A DNA stretch of 5,124 nucleotides from Bacillota bacterium (GTDB taxonomy: Bacteria > Bacillota > Bacilli > Thermoactinomycetales > DSM-44946): the NCBI GenBank assembly GCA_021793745.1, contig JAJYSD010000142.1:1-5124 (forward strand), in the 5' to 3' direction. The notes beneath the pieces were generated by a model, which saw nothing but the letters and a program-made list of their open reading frames with translations, had not been told where the DNA came from and searched no databases. Position 1 is the first letter of the stretch. Each line of letters opens with the position of its first letter. The translations under genes and the position numbers were made by a program. This document shows positions 517 to 5,124 of the stretch, one piece after another.

Positions 517-2280
517 ATGTGCGGCATTTGCGGAATCATCGACCTGGACGAGAACCAGACCGAGGAAAATCGGTTGCGTTCGATGCTTTCCCCTCTGGAA
601 CGCCGCGAACCGGATGAAAAGGGTTGGCTGATCCAACCCGGCGCAGCCCCCCAACGCAGTCCCCATATCATCGATCTGACGGACAAGGGACGCCAGCCGA
701 TGACGGATAAGGAGCTGGGCCTTTCCGTTGTGTATAGCGGGAAAATCTACAATTACCGCGAGCTGAAGCGGAACCTGACGACCCTGGGATACCGGTTTTT
801 CTCCGACAGCGACACCGAAGTGCTTCTGAAGGCCTACCACGCCTGGGGGGATGCCTTTGTCACCCGTCTTTCGGGGATGTTCGCCTTTTGCCTTTATGAC
901 CGAAATCGGAGGCGGTGTTTGCTCGGCCGTGACCGCCTGGGTGTAAAACCCCTTTATTTCGTGGATGCCGGGGATACCTTCTACTTCGCCTCCAACATCC
1001 AGTCCCTGAAGCGGGCAGGCGCCGTTCGACCCATCCTTTCGAAGCGGGCCCTCCATTATTACCTCTCCTTTCACGGGGTGATCCCGGCCCCCTGGACCAT
1101 CTTTGAGAATGTCCGAAAGCTGGAACCGGCCACCCTGCTGGTCATCGATGCCAAGGGTCGAAAACGGAAGCAAACATACTGGACCCTGAACTTCGATGAA
1201 AAACGGCAATGGAGCGAGGAAGAGTGGGTGGAGCGGCTTCTCCACACCCTCGAGGCCAGCGTCCGGCGTCAAATGGAGAGCGACGTCCCCGTTGGCGCCC
1301 TGTTGAGCGGCGGCGTCGACTCCAGCATGATCGTCGCCCTGATGGCCCGGATGGAACCCGGGTCCCTCCGGACCTACTCCATCGGGTTTGAGGATGTGGC
1401 CGGAGAAGCGGGGAACGAGTTCCGCTACAGCGATCGGATCGCGGAGTTGTTCGGTACGGATCACCGCAAAATTTACATCGACTCCAAGGAGCTCCTCTCC
1501 CACCTGAAGGATTGCATCCGAAGCATGGCCGAGCCGATGACAAGCCATGACGCCGTCGCCTTTTATCTCCTGTCCCGGGAGGTGAGCCGGGAAACCAGGG
1601 CGGTACTGAGCGGGCAAGGCGCCGATGAAGTGTTTGCGGGATATCATTGGTATCCCCGGATCAACGACGGTTCCGGCCATCCGGCGGACCGGTATGAGAA
1701 GGCCTTCTTCGACCGAGATCACACCGAAATTCGGGAGATGCTGGGCCCCGAATACCGCGGAGACAATTGGTCCCGACAATTTGTCCACGACCATTTTGGC
1801 TTGCCCGGAGCCTCCCACCCGGTGGACAAAGCCCTCCGGCTCGACACCACGGTGATGCTGGTGGACGACCCCCTCAAACGGGTGGACAACATGACCACAT
1901 GCTGGGGTTTGCAGGCCCGGGTCCCCTTTTTGGATCATGAGCTGGTGGAGCTGGCCGCCGCCATGCCGCCGGAAATCAAGCTGGCCGGAGGGGGCAAAGC
2001 CATTTTGAAAAAAGCGGCGGAACGGCTGATCCCCCGGGAGGTGATTTACCGGAAAAAGGGCTATTTCCCCGTCCCCGCCTTGAAATACCTGCGCGGCGAA
2101 TACCTGGAATTCGCTCGGGAGGTGCTCCTGTCGGAGCGGGCGCGCAGACGCGGGCTGTTTTCCCCGGAATACGTGGAAAAACTGCTGGCCGCCCCGGAAA
2201 ATCACATCACCCCCTTAGGAGGCAGCAAATTGTGGCAGATCGCCCTGTTGGAATACTGGCTGGAGGAAATGGGGTGCTGA
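517..2280 (+). CDS. asnO: AsnO: asparagine-synthetase-like amidotransferase of N-acetylglutaminylglutamine amide synthesis
   Basis: The 587-aa cytoplasmic protein has the two-domain architecture of asparagine synthetase B. Residues 1-200 are a class II glutamine amidotransferase domain starting MCGICG, with Cys2 the expected nucleophile after Met removal. Residues about 240-580 are the ATP-dependent synthetase domain with the pyrophosphatase loop SGGVDSS (264-270). The stretches SEPM-SHDA-AFYLLSREVS (337-357), SGQGADEVFAGYHWYP (365-380), RLDTTVMLVDDPLKRVDNM (441-459) and KKGYFPVP (513-520) are the pattern I know from AsnO rather than from plain AsnB. Length also fits AsnO (about 590 aa) better than AsnB (about 555). 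Expected role: conversion of N-acetylglutaminylglutamine to its C-terminal amide, with ATP giving AMP and PPi. It is the first gene of a three-gene operon. Oddity: the glutaminase pocket reads REPD (30-33) for RGPD, QRSPHIID (46-53) for HRRLSIID, and SGKIYNY (74-80) for NGEIYNY, while Asp99 is kept. Amide-donor use may be altered. Confidence 0.9.
   Translation: MCGICGIIDLDENQTEENRLRSMLSPLERREPDEKGWLIQPGAAPQRSPHIIDLTDKGRQPMTDKELGLSVVYSGKIYNYRELKRNLTTLGYRFFSDSDTEVLLKAYHAWGDAFVTRLSGMFAFCLYDRNRRRCLLGRDRLGVKPLYFVDAGDTFYFASNIQSLKRAGAVRPILSKRALHYYLSFHGVIPAPWTIFENVRKLEPATLLVIDAKGRKRKQTYWTLNFDEKRQWSEEEWVERLLHTLEASVRRQMESDVPVGALLSGGVDSSMIVALMARMEPGSLRTYSIGFEDVAGEAGNEFRYSDRIAELFGTDHRKIYIDSKELLSHLKDCIRSMAEPMTSHDAVAFYLLSREVSRETRAVLSGQGADEVFAGYHWYPRINDGSGHPADRYEKAFFDRDHTEIREMLGPEYRGDNWSRQFVHDHFGLPGASHPVDKALRLDTTVMLVDDPLKRVDNMTTCWGLQARVPFLDHELVELAAAMPPEIKLAGGGKAILKKAAERLIPREVIYRKKGYFPVPALKYLRGEYLEFAREVLLSERARRRGLFSPEYVEKLLAAPENHITPLGGSKLWQIALLEYWLEEMGC
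2217..2222 (+). promoter_or_regulatory. Perfect AGGAGG that could set an upstream GTG start for the GNAT gene
   Basis: AGGAGG lies inside the 3' end of asnO, 9 bases before GTG 2232, which is in frame with the GNAT gene. Using it would add 17 residues and give a 49-bp overlap with asnO. However, the same bases encode Leu-Gly-Gly of the conserved LGGSKLWQ segment of AsnO, so the match may be a by-product of protein conservation. The competing start is ATG 2283, two bases after the asnO stop, with only a weaker GGGGTG (2271-2276) in front. Confidence 0.4.
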
Positions 2281-2282
2281 CC

Positions 2283-3089
2283 ATGACACAGCGCACACGG
2301 GTCCGCCACGTGAAACGCTCCCTGTCGACGACCCCGTCCGGCTGGGTAGAGGACATGCCCCCGGTCATCCACCGGAAAATGAAACGCAACGTCACCCTCT
2401 TCTGCGGATGGGGCCGGCTCATTTTCGGACATACCTTTTCCGACCACGATCGGATCATCGACATCTTCGCCTCCGAACCCGAGGGCAAGCGCGACCTGGC
2501 CATCTACATCAAAAACCATCATGTGCTCTTGACCAAGGCACCGGACCTGTTATTCGTCGATCCCTCCCACACTTACCGCCTGTGGCTGCACCACTATCGG
2601 ATGCCCAAGCAGCGCCCCTCCCACTTCCGCATCCGCCTCCTGCAGGGTGAGGAAGACGCGCGACAGGTCAACGCCATTTACCGAAAATGCGGGCTGATTG
2701 AAAGCCCCGTCTCCACCATCGTGGAAAACCAGAAAACCCCCGTCTTCAGCTACTTCGTCGCCGAAGACGCCGACGGGCAAATCATCGGGTCGATTATGGG
2801 GATCGACCACAAGGCGGCCTTCAACGATCCGGAGAAGGGGGCCAGCTTCTGGTGCCTCGCAGTGGATCCCGATCGACGGGCCCGGGGCGTGGGCCGATCC
2901 CTCGTCCGATGCGTGGCGGAATATTACCTGGCCAAGGGAAGGGAATATCTGGACCTGTCCGTGCTCCACGACAATCACAGGGCCATCCGCCTGTACCGCT
3001 CCCTCGGCTTTCGCCGGGTGCCCGTCTATGTGGTCAAACGGAAAAATGAAATCAACCGGAACTTTTACACAGGAGGGCCAAAGCCGTGA
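2283..3089 (+). CDS. ngg: GNAT N-acetyltransferase, equivalent to the N-terminal half of Ngg
   Basis: The 268-aa protein (from ATG 2283; 285 aa from GTG 2232) has two parts. Residues about 35-110 form an extension with CGWGRLIFGHTF (41-52) and DPSHTYRLWLHHY (93-105), which I recognise from Ngg, the N-acetylglutaminylglutamine synthetase. Residues about 114-250 are a GNAT fold. They carry the acetyl-CoA pyrophosphate loop R-A-R-G-V-G (199-204, consensus Q/R-x-x-G-x-G/A) after the beta-4 strand FWCLAVDP (189-196), then motif B with N231, Y238 and LGF (241-243). Expected role: transfer of acetyl from acetyl-CoA to the alpha-amino group of glutamine or of the dipeptide; which one is inferred, not shown. 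It starts 2 bases after asnO and overlaps the ATP-grasp gene by 4 bases, so translation of all three is probably coupled. In known systems this domain is fused to the ligase, whereas here it stands alone. Confidence 0.82.
   Translation: MTQRTRVRHVKRSLSTTPSGWVEDMPPVIHRKMKRNVTLFCGWGRLIFGHTFSDHDRIIDIFASEPEGKRDLAIYIKNHHVLLTKAPDLLFVDPSHTYRLWLHHYRMPKQRPSHFRIRLLQGEEDARQVNAIYRKCGLIESPVSTIVENQKTPVFSYFVAEDADGQIIGSIMGIDHKAAFNDPEKGASFWCLAVDPDRRARGVGRSLVRCVAEYYLAKGREYLDLSVLHDNHRAIRLYRSLGFRRVPVYVVKRKNEINRNFYTGGPKP
3071..3077 (+). promoter_or_regulatory. Strong ribosome binding site of the ATP-grasp gene
   Basis: AGGAGGG lies 8 bases before GTG 3086, inside the last codons of the GNAT gene. Its quality and spacing argue that the ATP-grasp protein has its own initiation at GTG 3086. 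They speak against the split being a sequencing frameshift in one fused gene. Confidence 0.8.
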
Positions 3090-4051
3090 ACATTTATGCG
3101 CAGATTCTCGTCGACGAGGCCAAGCGCCGGGGAATTCGGGTGAAGGTGATCGACGACGAGCAGGGCCTGTTTGTCCTGGAACACGGCGGTAAGCGCATCC
3201 GCTGCCGCGAATCCCTCACCGATCGAACCTCCGCCGTCGCCATGGCCATCTGCGAAAACAAATGCCTCACCCACCGGATCCTGAGGCAGGCGGGATTCTC
3301 CGTGCCGGATCAGGTACTGATCGACCGGGAGACAACGCCGAAGGAGATCCGCTCGACCGCCGATCTGTACCTGAAAAAATGGGGAAGTGTCGTCGTCAAA
3401 CCCCTCCGGGGTGAGCAGGGAAAAGGCGTCACCGTAGACGTCACCACACCGGAGGAGGTGGAGCGGGCCTGCCGATTCGCCGCCCGGGACGGAGACGAGG
3501 TGGTTTTGGAGCAATACGTGGAAGGGCGGGATCTTCGCATCATCGTCATCGACCATGCCTTTGTGGCCGCCATTGAACGGACCCCCGCCCGCATCACCGG
3601 GGACGGCCGCCACACCGTCCGCCAGCTGGTCGAAGAGGCGAACCGGCAGCTCCGGGAGCAAACCGGCGGGGAAGCCCGGATTCCGATCGACGATGAAACG
3701 CGGCGGGTGATCCGGCAGTCCGGATGGGATTGGGACGAAGTCCCCCCCGCCGGAGAAACCTTTCCCCTGCGAAAAACGGCCAACTTTCACACGGGCGGAA
3801 CCATCCGCGATGTCACCGATCAGGTGGCTCCCCGATTCCGGAGGATCGCCGAGGAGGCCAGCCGCATCCTCGATATCCCCGTCGTCGGCTTCGATTTCCT
3901 CGCCCCCGACTTCAGCGGAGAACGCTATACCCTCATCGAAGCCAACGAGCGCCCCGGTCTGGCCAACCACGAGCCCCAGCCGACGGCGGAGCGGTTCATC
4001 GACTTTCTCTTTCCGGAAACCCGGGAGAAAATCGGCGAGCAGGCCGGTTGA
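3086..4051 (+). CDS. ngg: ATP-grasp peptide ligase, equivalent to the C-terminal half of Ngg
   Basis: The 321-aa cytoplasmic ligase belongs to the ATP-grasp superfamily, near the cyanophycin-synthetase and glutathione-synthetase (GshAB) type. Visible signatures in order are RESLTDRTSAVAMAICENK (41-59), VVVKPLRGEQGKGV (102-115, nucleotide-binding Lys and glycine-rich loop), EQYVEGRDLRIIVI (142-155), ERTPARITGDGRHTV (164-178), GGTIRDVTD (237-245), VGFDFLAPD (267-275) and IEANERPGL (284-292, with Glu285 and Asn287 the expected Mg2+ ligands). Expected role: ATP-dependent amide bond formation between N-acetylglutamine and glutamine, giving ADP and phosphate. The N-terminus NIYAQILVDEAKRRGI matches the point where the ligase domain begins in fused Ngg, so nothing seems missing. 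GTG is chosen because of the AGGAGGG 8 bases upstream; the GTGA overlap with the GNAT stop suggests coupling. It is the last gene of the operon. Substrate is inferred from neighbours; the domain alone would be just a CphA-like ligase. Confidence 0.85.
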   Translation: MNIYAQILVDEAKRRGIRVKVIDDEQGLFVLEHGGKRIRCRESLTDRTSAVAMAICENKCLTHRILRQAGFSVPDQVLIDRETTPKEIRSTADLYLKKWGSVVVKPLRGEQGKGVTVDVTTPEEVERACRFAARDGDEVVLEQYVEGRDLRIIVIDHAFVAAIERTPARITGDGRHTVRQLVEEANRQLREQTGGEARIPIDDETRRVIRQSGWDWDEVPPAGETFPLRKTANFHTGGTIRDVTDQVAPRFRRIAEEASRILDIPVVGFDFLAPDFSGERYTLIEANERPGLANHEPQPTAERFIDFLFPETREKIGEQAG

Positions 4052-4311: not shown

Positions 4312-4905
4312 TTGCACACCCGTCGAAGCATTGTCTGGATCGGTGCAGGCGGACTCAGCCTGCTTATCGGAATGCACTTTCTGCTGACGCTGCTGTATCT
4401 GGCTCCCGACAACCTGTTAAAACGACGTTTTTCGGAGCCCCTTCAGCAGTACATGGATCCCCTCTTCGCTCAAAACTGGCAACTGTTTGCCCCCGACCCG
4501 GTTTCCCAGCACCGCTCCCTCGCCGCCAAGGCGAAAGTGCGCGACCCGAAAACCGGCGAAGTCCGGGAAACTCCGTGGCGGGATCTCACCGGTCCCCGGG
4601 TCCGGGAGGTGTGGGAAAACCGGTTGTTCAACGGCAGTCGGGCCCTGCGATTCCAGGTCTCTGCCATCTCCATGTATCAAAGCAAAGACCCGGCGCGAAA
4701 AGCCCAGGGCCGACAGATGCTGCGACGTCTGGCGCTGGACTCCTTCCGTTCGAAACCGGGTCTTCGGCATGTCGAACAGGTAAAGGTGCGAATTGTCCTC
4801 AACCGCTTCCCGCGCTATCCGGAACGGCAGAAACCCGACCGGATGGGCACCCTCTACTTTGACGAAACGGATTGGATGCCGGTGGAAAAGGGGCATCAGC
4901 AATGA
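4312..4905 (+). CDS. DUF5819-like single-pass membrane protein
   Basis: The protein is 197 aa from the preferred TTG start (205 aa from ATG 4288, 227 from GTG 4222). It begins with a short basic tail (HTRR, 2-5) followed by one hydrophobic segment at about residues 7-32, then a soluble region that is probably outside the membrane if the positive-inside rule holds. The motif YMDPLFAQNWQLFAPDP (47-63) is the hallmark I associate with DUF5819-family proteins. The rest (about 64-197) is basic and without a recognised catalytic site. Function is unknown. It overlaps the following HTTM gene by 4 bases (ATGA), so the two are surely co-expressed. By analogy, SdpA and the HTTM protein SdpB act together in maturing the Bacillus toxin SdpC. 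No toxin precursor is visible here, so that analogy is only a hint. The start codon is uncertain; the frame and stop are firm. Confidence 0.7.
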   Translation: MHTRRSIVWIGAGGLSLLIGMHFLLTLLYLAPDNLLKRRFSEPLQQYMDPLFAQNWQLFAPDPVSQHRSLAAKAKVRDPKTGEVRETPWRDLTGPRVREVWENRLFNGSRALRFQVSAISMYQSKDPARKAQGRQMLRRLALDSFRSKPGLRHVEQVKVRIVLNRFPRYPERQKPDRMGTLYFDETDWMPVEKGHQQ

Positions 4906-5124
4906 GCCAACGATTGTACCGTTTCCTCACCACGGAGCACCTGCTCACGGGGATCAGCCTGGCCCGGATCGCCTACGGCTTGTTTCTCCTCTTTTACCTC
5001 ATCAGCCATTATGCCGAGCGCCACCTTTTATGGGGACCCGACGGGCTTTTGCCTCACGATGCCTTCCTGGAAGCCTCCGAGGCACGGGGAATCCTCACCC
5101 TGTTCCATCTGAGCGGTTCGCCCG
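4902..5124 (+). CDS. HTTM-domain membrane protein, N-terminal part (runs off the window)
   Basis: 74 residues are visible; the frame is open to the window edge. ATG 4902 overlaps the previous stop (ATGA) and has AAAGGGG (4887-4893) 8 bases upstream. The start, with SLARIAYGLFLLFYLISHY (19-37) as a first membrane helix followed by LLWGPDGLLPHDAF (43-56), is typical of HTTM proteins. HTTM is the horizontally transferred transmembrane domain related to vitamin K-dependent gamma-carboxylase and found in SdpB. Family members have several membrane helices; only the first can be seen. Its partner is the DUF5819-like protein upstream. Substrate and reaction are not known from the sequence, and the carboxylase relationship does not imply carboxylase activity. 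Confidence 0.75.
   Translation, partial: MSQRLYRFLTTEHLLTGISLARIAYGLFLLFYLISHYAERHLLWGPDGLLPHDAFLEASEARGILTLFHLSGSP

What the first reader, a model, noticed from the sequence alone, without database searches (positions are those of the whole stretch)
517..4051. NAGGN osmolyte pathway with the Ngg synthetase split into two genes
asnO is followed by a free-standing GNAT protein and a free-standing ATP-grasp ligase. Their domain order, combined length (268 + 321 aa) and motifs match the single fused Ngg protein known from Pseudomonas and Sinorhizobium. The split falls exactly where the ligase domain begins. The strong AGGAGGG and GTGA overlap show that each half is separately translated. This implies the two activities either form a complex or act on a diffusible intermediate (N-acetylglutamine), and it puts the pathway in what looks like a Gram-positive host. 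I do not know whether a split form has been described.
Basis: partly seen in the sequence, partly recalled or inferred. Interest (0 to 1): 0.8.

Follow-up and report, generated by a model that had tools for sequence, protein, structure and literature searches.

The report
Two-gene NAGGN synthetase in Bacillota
In this bacterium and in the related Bacillota found to carry it, the enzyme predicted to build the salt-stress dipeptide NAGGN is encoded by two adjoining genes instead of one fused gene, and here the partner amidating enzyme has also lost residues that are likely needed to use glutamine.

Summary
asnO (517-2280) is followed by a GNAT gene (2283-3089) and an ATP-grasp gene (3086-4051) sharing GTGA. 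They match positions 1-233 and 240-546 of the 547-position Ngg model. Nine of 398 class genomes, this one and two sisters included, have this split; none passes the fused-chain cut-off. One more Bacillota genome has it. Of 80 loci kept from a named collection, 73 are fused. Split and fused forms are divided by one branch (support 100). With cyanophycin synthetase as outgroup the root falls between them, so unfused is probably original; fission is not excluded. I found no description of a split form.

Beyond the finding: AsnO here has lost two glutamine-site residues (R49S, N74S) and a tunnel-mouth Glu, while both Ngg halves look intact. Such losses occur in 8 of 203 AsnO sequences; the 7 in the tree lie on its split side, in at least three events. 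The last step likely runs on free ammonia, or is decaying. No chemistry was tested.

The parts
517..2280 (+). asnO, N-acetylglutaminylglutamine amidotransferase (587 aa), glutaminase half plus synthetase half
   Evidence: TIGR03104 840.7 bits, cut-off 570.1; Pfam GATase_7 and Asn_synthase
607..609 (+). codon 31, Glu instead of the Gly of RRGPD
   Evidence: Gly in 195 of 195 reference AsnO sequences
658..660 (+). codon 48, Ser at the position of Arg49 (E. coli AsnB numbering), in the altered and one-residue-shorter GHRRLSI motif
   Evidence: Arg in 195 of 195 references; mapping to 1CT9; the exact codon depends on the alignment
736..738 (+). codon 74, Ser at the position of Asn74
   Evidence: Asn in 191 of 195 references
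1912..1914 (+). codon 466, Gln at the Glu of EARVPFLD (human ASNS Glu-414, tunnel mouth)
   Evidence: Glu in 194 of 195 references; alignment to human ASNS, numbering counted by me
2283..3089 (+). GNAT half of Ngg as a separate gene (268 aa; or from GTG at 2274), predicted glutamine N-acetyltransferase
   Evidence: TIGR03103 positions 1-233, 290.8 bits; model pLDDT 87.4, pTM 0.84, fold matches to tandem GNATs such as MshD
3071..3077 (+). Shine-Dalgarno-like AGGAGGG of the ligase gene, inside the GNAT codons for the conserved Gly-Gly
   Evidence: sequence; Gly-Gly invariant in 27 of 27 free-standing GNATs aligned, a Y.GG tail in 0 of 74 fused proteins; five or six bases of anti-SD complement in 7 of 11 split loci
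3086..3089 (+). GTGA overlap: start of the ligase gene and stop of the GNAT gene
   Evidence: sequence; junctions of 10 other split loci
3086..4051 (+). ATP-grasp half of Ngg as a separate gene (321 aa), predicted N-acetylglutamine-glutamine ligase
   Evidence: TIGR03103 positions 240-546, 431.6 bits; 0 of 70 near-invariant columns changed

Best explanation
This is a three-gene cluster in which the two halves of Ngg are separate, overlapping genes, and it likely makes N-acetylglutaminylglutamine (NAGG) that AsnO would amidate to the osmolyte NAGGN. Predicted course: the GNAT acetylates glutamine; the ATP-grasp ligase joins N-acetylglutamine to a second glutamine with ATP; AsnO adenylates the end carboxylate and adds nitrogen. 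The ligase gene is likely translated by coupling to the GNAT gene. The two-gene state marks one clade, all of it Bacillota so far, and is probably the original state, with a single fusion in the ancestor of the proteobacterial, actinobacterial and other forms. In this species AsnO has lost residues that hold glutamine, so its last step likely uses free ammonia; whether it still works is untested.
For: Shown: the three frames and their family matches; the same split in 9 of 398 class genomes (three of them this genus), none over the fused-chain cut-off, and in one more Bacillota genome; split and fused forms divided by one branch with support 100; fused forms a clade (100/93) and split forms a clade (91/83) with cyanophycin synthetase as outgroup; AsnO tree with AsnB outgroup: fused-type AsnO a clade (99). 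The ligase's Shine-Dalgarno-like sequence lies in GNAT tail codons that split forms keep and fused forms lack. Near-invariant columns: GNAT 1 of 40 changed (shared by the genus), ligase 0 of 70. AsnO: R49S, N74S and E414Q with PP-loop residues intact, dN/dS about 0.16 against its sister species. Reaction steps of Ngg and AsnO as given in passages of PMC8070244. An asparagine-synthetase-like enzyme used ammonia instead of glutamine (passage of PMC13060819). A BCCT transporter gene is two genes upstream of asnO in one split locus, L087.
Against: No metabolite or activity data. AU tests do not reject two trees with split forms nested among fused ones (p 0.167 and 0.194). The outgroups sit on long branches, and split-type AsnO is poorly supported as one group in the rooted AsnO tree (22). 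AsnO of this lineage also changes 5 of 103 near-invariant synthetase columns, 2 of them shared by the genus, which fits decay as well as ammonia use. 4 of the 13 class genomes with Ngg-type genes have incomplete operons. The peptidase TIGR03106 is over its cut-off in only 1 of 14 genomes searched, with three more at 316-359 bits below it. The fused model shows no firm contact between the two domains.
Confidence: 0.66

Rival explanations
1. The operon is decaying in this species: AsnO is a failing enzyme and the cell makes at most NAGG, or nothing.
For: AsnO lost R49 and N74 and changed E414 and other near-invariant positions; the two nearest sequences lost Cys1 (P0244, P0247); 4 of 13 class operons are incomplete; patchy presence, 3 of 42 genomes of the order.
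Against: No stop codons; AsnO dN/dS 0.156 and 0.157, not far above the 0.125 between its intact sisters; PP-loop residues intact; GNAT and ligase unchanged at near-invariant columns apart from one shared by the genus; the same changes in another allele, P0243, one residue different.
Confidence: 0.3
2. The split is derived: an originally fused Ngg broke in two once, in the ancestor of the Bacillota forms.
For: AU tests do not reject two trees in which split forms nest among fused ones (p 0.167, 0.194); fused forms are far more widespread in the sample.
Against: Both outgroup-rooted trees leave the fused forms a clade (100/93, 99), and cyanophycin synthetase, the outgroup, has no GNAT attached (known architecture, recalled).
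Confidence: 0.27
3. The genes make a different compound: AsnO joins NAGG to another amine or closes a ring, as the related beta-lactam synthetase and CarA do (their lack of glutaminase activity is recalled).
For: The glutamine site was changed at least three times in split-type AsnO, while the adenylating motifs are kept.
Against: GNAT and ligase are conserved. Of ten neighbouring ORFs scanned none is an obvious tailoring gene, but one 243-aa ORF beside the ligase in G002 has no family. Ammonia use is the simpler reading.
Confidence: 0.08
4. Sequencing or assembly error broke one gene into two.
For: The window comes from a fragmented genome assembly (430 contigs, 68 percent complete).
Against: The same split in 10 other loci from independent genomes and in another allele of the ligase (P0123).
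Confidence: 0.01

Closest known systems
Ngg (N-acetylglutaminylglutamine synthetase, TIGR03103), e.g. the homologue on Sinorhizobium meliloti pSymB (L096)
   Same: Same two domains in the same order behind asnO; both halves align over nearly the whole model; near-invariant residues kept.
   Different: Two proteins with their own starts instead of one chain; neither half alone reaches the curated cut-off; the linker of fused forms, ending in most cases in LNPYA, is replaced by a GG-containing tail plus a new start.
AsnO (TIGR03104)
   Same: Full-length match above cut-off, same place in the operon.
   Different: Two of five glutamine-site residues checked (Cys1, Arg49, Asn74, Gly75, Asp98) and a tunnel-mouth Glu are replaced.
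Cyanophycin synthetase ATP-grasp domain (TIGR02068; 7lgn) and GshAB
   Same: Nearest other ATP-grasp relatives of the ligase.
   Different: Much lower scores (231 against 432 bits), far larger proteins; a separate clade.
Tandem-GNAT acetyltransferases (MshD, VipF)
   Same: Best solved-structure matches of the GNAT model, over 191-252 alignment columns.
   Different: 15-21 percent identity; only the C-terminal half has a recognisable GNAT signature.

Membership tests
TIGR03103 Ngg equivalog | single chain over the 569-bit cut-off | tested here: not met
   290.8 and 431.6 bits for the two halves; 0 of 398 class genomes over the cut-off
TIGR03103 Ngg equivalog | both domains present, in order, with conserved residues | tested here: met
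   positions 1-233 and 240-546 of 547; 1 of 40 and 0 of 70 near-invariant columns changed
TIGR03103 Ngg equivalog | makes NAGG from two glutamines, acetyl-CoA and ATP | not testable with these tools
   needs an enzyme assay
TIGR03104 AsnO equivalog | score over the curated cut-off | tested here: met
   840.7 against 570.1 bits
Class II (Ntn) glutamine amidotransferase activity | N-terminal Cys1 | tested here: met
   MCGIC start
Class II (Ntn) glutamine amidotransferase activity | glutamine-binding Arg49 and Asn74 | tested here: not met
   Ser at both; role of these residues from passages of PMC11296641
Asparagine-synthetase-type adenylating domain | SGGVDSS PP-loop and SGQGADE motif | tested here: met
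   all residues checked are kept
NAGGN gene cluster as in Pseudomonas (asnO, ngg, peptidase) | TIGR03106 M42 peptidase gene | tested here: not met
   own genome best 74.8 bits, cut-off 397.75, genome only 68 percent complete; sister genomes at most 75 bits

The most novel reading that the evidence does not exclude
Bacillota keep the original two-enzyme form of the NAGGN pathway, and at least three of their lineages run it with a glutaminase-dead AsnO that amidates NAGG with free ammonia (or another amine): a glutamine-sparing version of an osmolyte pathway, or a source of new NAGG derivatives.
Probability: 0.25. Interest if true: 0.6.

Novelty: new variant of a known kind. Interest (0 to 1): 0.45.

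Why it matters
It puts the NAGGN genes in Gram-positive Bacillota, where NCBI records name the halves only 'GNAT family N-acetyltransferase' and 'ATP-grasp domain-containing protein' and JGI records call several of the ligases 'GNAT-family acetyltransferase (TIGR03103 family)', which is the wrong half. It gives two separately purifiable enzymes, so acetylation and ligation can be assayed apart, including whether free N-acetylglutamine is the intermediate. It suggests how the fused enzyme arose. The repeated change of the glutamine site in AsnO offers a natural test of whether such enzymes can live on ammonia.

Tried and rejected
Frameshift artefact: rejected by sister genomes. A split form outside Bacillota: the only such locus with broken frames among the 80, L126, is a metagenome contig of 5.6-fold coverage; reading the 260 bases at the break by eye I saw no start codon at the head of the ligase frame; unresolved, not counted as a second split. 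L165, named Thermoanaerobacterales (Bacillota), is fused but groups with Actinomycetota in the four trees that held it; misnaming or transfer, not followed. Glu76 as a lost glutamine residue: dropped, because it is Cys in 119 of 195 AsnO references. The Gln in the SGQGADE motif as a lesion: dropped, it is Gln in 195 of 195. P0003 as another strain's GNAT: dropped, it is the window's own protein read from GTG 2274. Riboswitch control: no Rfam match in the window; one c-di-AMP riboswitch about 3 kb upstream of asnO in L087, about 0.9 kb before the BCCT gene, its target not tested. A fixed contact between the Ngg domains: pLDDT 86.1 but pTM 0.62 in the fused model, no support. 16S search of the three genomes of the genus: no match, so the genus is not named. 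Promoter scan 3 found against 1.6 expected, terminator scan 3 against 6.7. Papers: 9 searches; the original NAGGN paper (doi 10.1073/pnas.1003063107) is not held and is known here only through other papers. Rows left out: 44 of 74 fused Ngg rows used; 12 of 46 cyanophycin synthetase rows; 7 of the 44 fused loci had no full AsnO, and 11 of 12 AsnB rows were used there; 24 fused loci.

Full report
Observation. A GTG at 2274 is a possible earlier GNAT start. AsnO matches TIGR03104 with 840.7 bits (cut-off 570.1). The GNAT matches TIGR03103 (Ngg, 547 positions) over 1-233 with 290.8 bits and the ligase over 240-546 with 431.6 bits; the cut-off for the single chain is 569. The window is one whole contig of a fragmented assembly, 68 percent complete.

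Is the split real and how wide is it? Both sister genomes (G001, G002) have it. In the order only these 3 of 42 genomes, 1 of 27 genera, have a match at E 1e-40 or better. Of 398 genomes of the class, 9 (this genus's three included) have both halves as separate genes, 4 have only parts, and none has a match over the cut-off; only the three best candidates of each genome were scored. One further split genome (G739) appears among 398 of the phylum, again with none over the cut-off. It is a sample ranked by likeness to the free-standing GNATs, not a census. One locus named as Bacillota (L165) is fused but groups with Actinomycetota.

How the split is built. The 27 aligned free-standing GNATs (taken as split by their length, four of them confirmed in loci) end in a tail with an invariant Gly-Gly; 0 of 74 fused proteins have a Y.GG tail there. 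In the DNA these glycine codons form the ligase gene's ribosome site: 7 of 11 split loci have five or six bases of anti-Shine-Dalgarno complement, the other 4 a G-rich run with at most four. That the two genes are translationally coupled is inferred.

Which state came first? On 55 concatenated GNAT plus ligase rows the 11 split and 44 fused forms are divided by one branch, support 100 (SH-aLRT, quick method). With 12 cyanophycin synthetase rows as outgroup for the ligase, fused forms are a clade (100/93) and split forms a clade (91/83). The AsnO tree with AsnB as outgroup also keeps the fused-type AsnO as a clade (99), the split type being poorly supported as one group (22), with a long-branch warning. 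Since the outgroup ligase carries no GNAT (recalled), one fusion on the fused stem is the simplest reading. Against it, AU tests did not reject two trees with split forms nested among fused ones (p 0.167 and 0.194).

What it does. The published scheme, as summarised in passages of PMC8070244 and PMC5563000, is: Ngg acetylates one glutamine and joins it to a second, giving NAGG; AsnO then transfers an amide nitrogen to give NAGGN. The conserved residues of both halves are kept here: 1 of 40 near-invariant GNAT columns changed (shared with the sister species) and 0 of 70 in the ligase. The same activities are therefore likely, on two proteins. A tight complex or a free N-acetylglutamine intermediate are both possible; a model of a fused homologue has pLDDT 86.1 but pTM 0.62 and gives no support for a fixed contact. 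No riboswitch was found in the window or in the other 13 loci searched.

AsnO of this species. Aligned with 195 reference AsnO proteins it has Ser for Arg49 (Arg in 195), Ser for Asn74 (Asn in 191), Glu for Gly31 (Gly in 195) and Gln for the Glu of EARVPFLD (Glu in 194). By alignment to solved structures Arg49 and Asn74 are glutamine-binding residues of E. coli AsnB (passages of PMC11296641), and that Glu is human Glu-414, which with Asn-74 and Glu-76 takes part in the network holding the tunnel gate Arg-142 open (passages of PMC11615228; the numbering match is my count). Cys1 and the PP-loop are intact. It is unlikely to be a sequencing error: P0243, an allele with one other residue, has the same changes. 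Overall it changes 5 of 48 near-invariant glutaminase columns (1 shared by the genus) and 5 of 103 synthetase columns (2 shared), against means of 0.16 and 0.28 in the references; dN/dS to the sister species is about 0.16, against 0.125 between these sisters.

It is not alone. Of 203 AsnO sequences, 8 change Cys1, Arg49, Asn74, Gly75 or Asp98: the window and P0243, P0244 (C1S), P0247 (C1Y), P0264 and P0265 (N74D), P0274 and P0275 (C1S with N74D or N74S). A few other rows are cut short at Cys1 and could not be judged there. The 7 put in the tree (P0243 left out as near-identical) lie on the split side of the AsnO tree and need at least three separate changes. Contig lengths pair P0264, P0265 and P0275 with free-standing GNATs (P0027, P0028, P0035); for P0274 no partner was found. 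An enzyme of this kind was reported to use ammonia in place of glutamine (passage of PMC13060819), so a glutamine-free last step is plausible; decay is the main rival, and incomplete operons in 4 of 13 class genomes keep it alive.

Novelty. Of nine paper searches, six bear on this; their listings, and passages read in six papers, gave no description of a split Ngg or of NAGGN genes in these genera. Most subscription papers are not in that library. I rate it a new variant of a known kind.

Noticed in passing
window 517-2280: AsnO has lost R49, N74 and the EARVPFLD Glu; other split-side AsnO proteins lost Cys1 or N74, at least three events in all.
   Followed up: yes
Whether real or assembly gaps is unknown.
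   Followed up: partly
L087:11321-14131: BCCT transporter gene and, further upstream, a c-di-AMP riboswitch before the split NAGGN genes.
   Followed up: partly
window 4312-5123: A DUF5819 protein gene overlapping the start of a gene that resembles one in G002 with HTTM and DCC1-like domains; G001 and G002 have an extra 243-aa ORF between the ligase and DUF5819 genes that the window lacks.
   Followed up: no
AsnO family column of E. coli Glu76: 119 of 195 AsnO references have Cys where 44 have Glu; nearly all the loci listed there as differing from Glu are fused-type, and most split-type loci keep it. Unexplained.
   Followed up: no
L165: A contig named Thermoanaerobacterales carries a fused Ngg that groups with Actinomycetota.
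   Followed up: no
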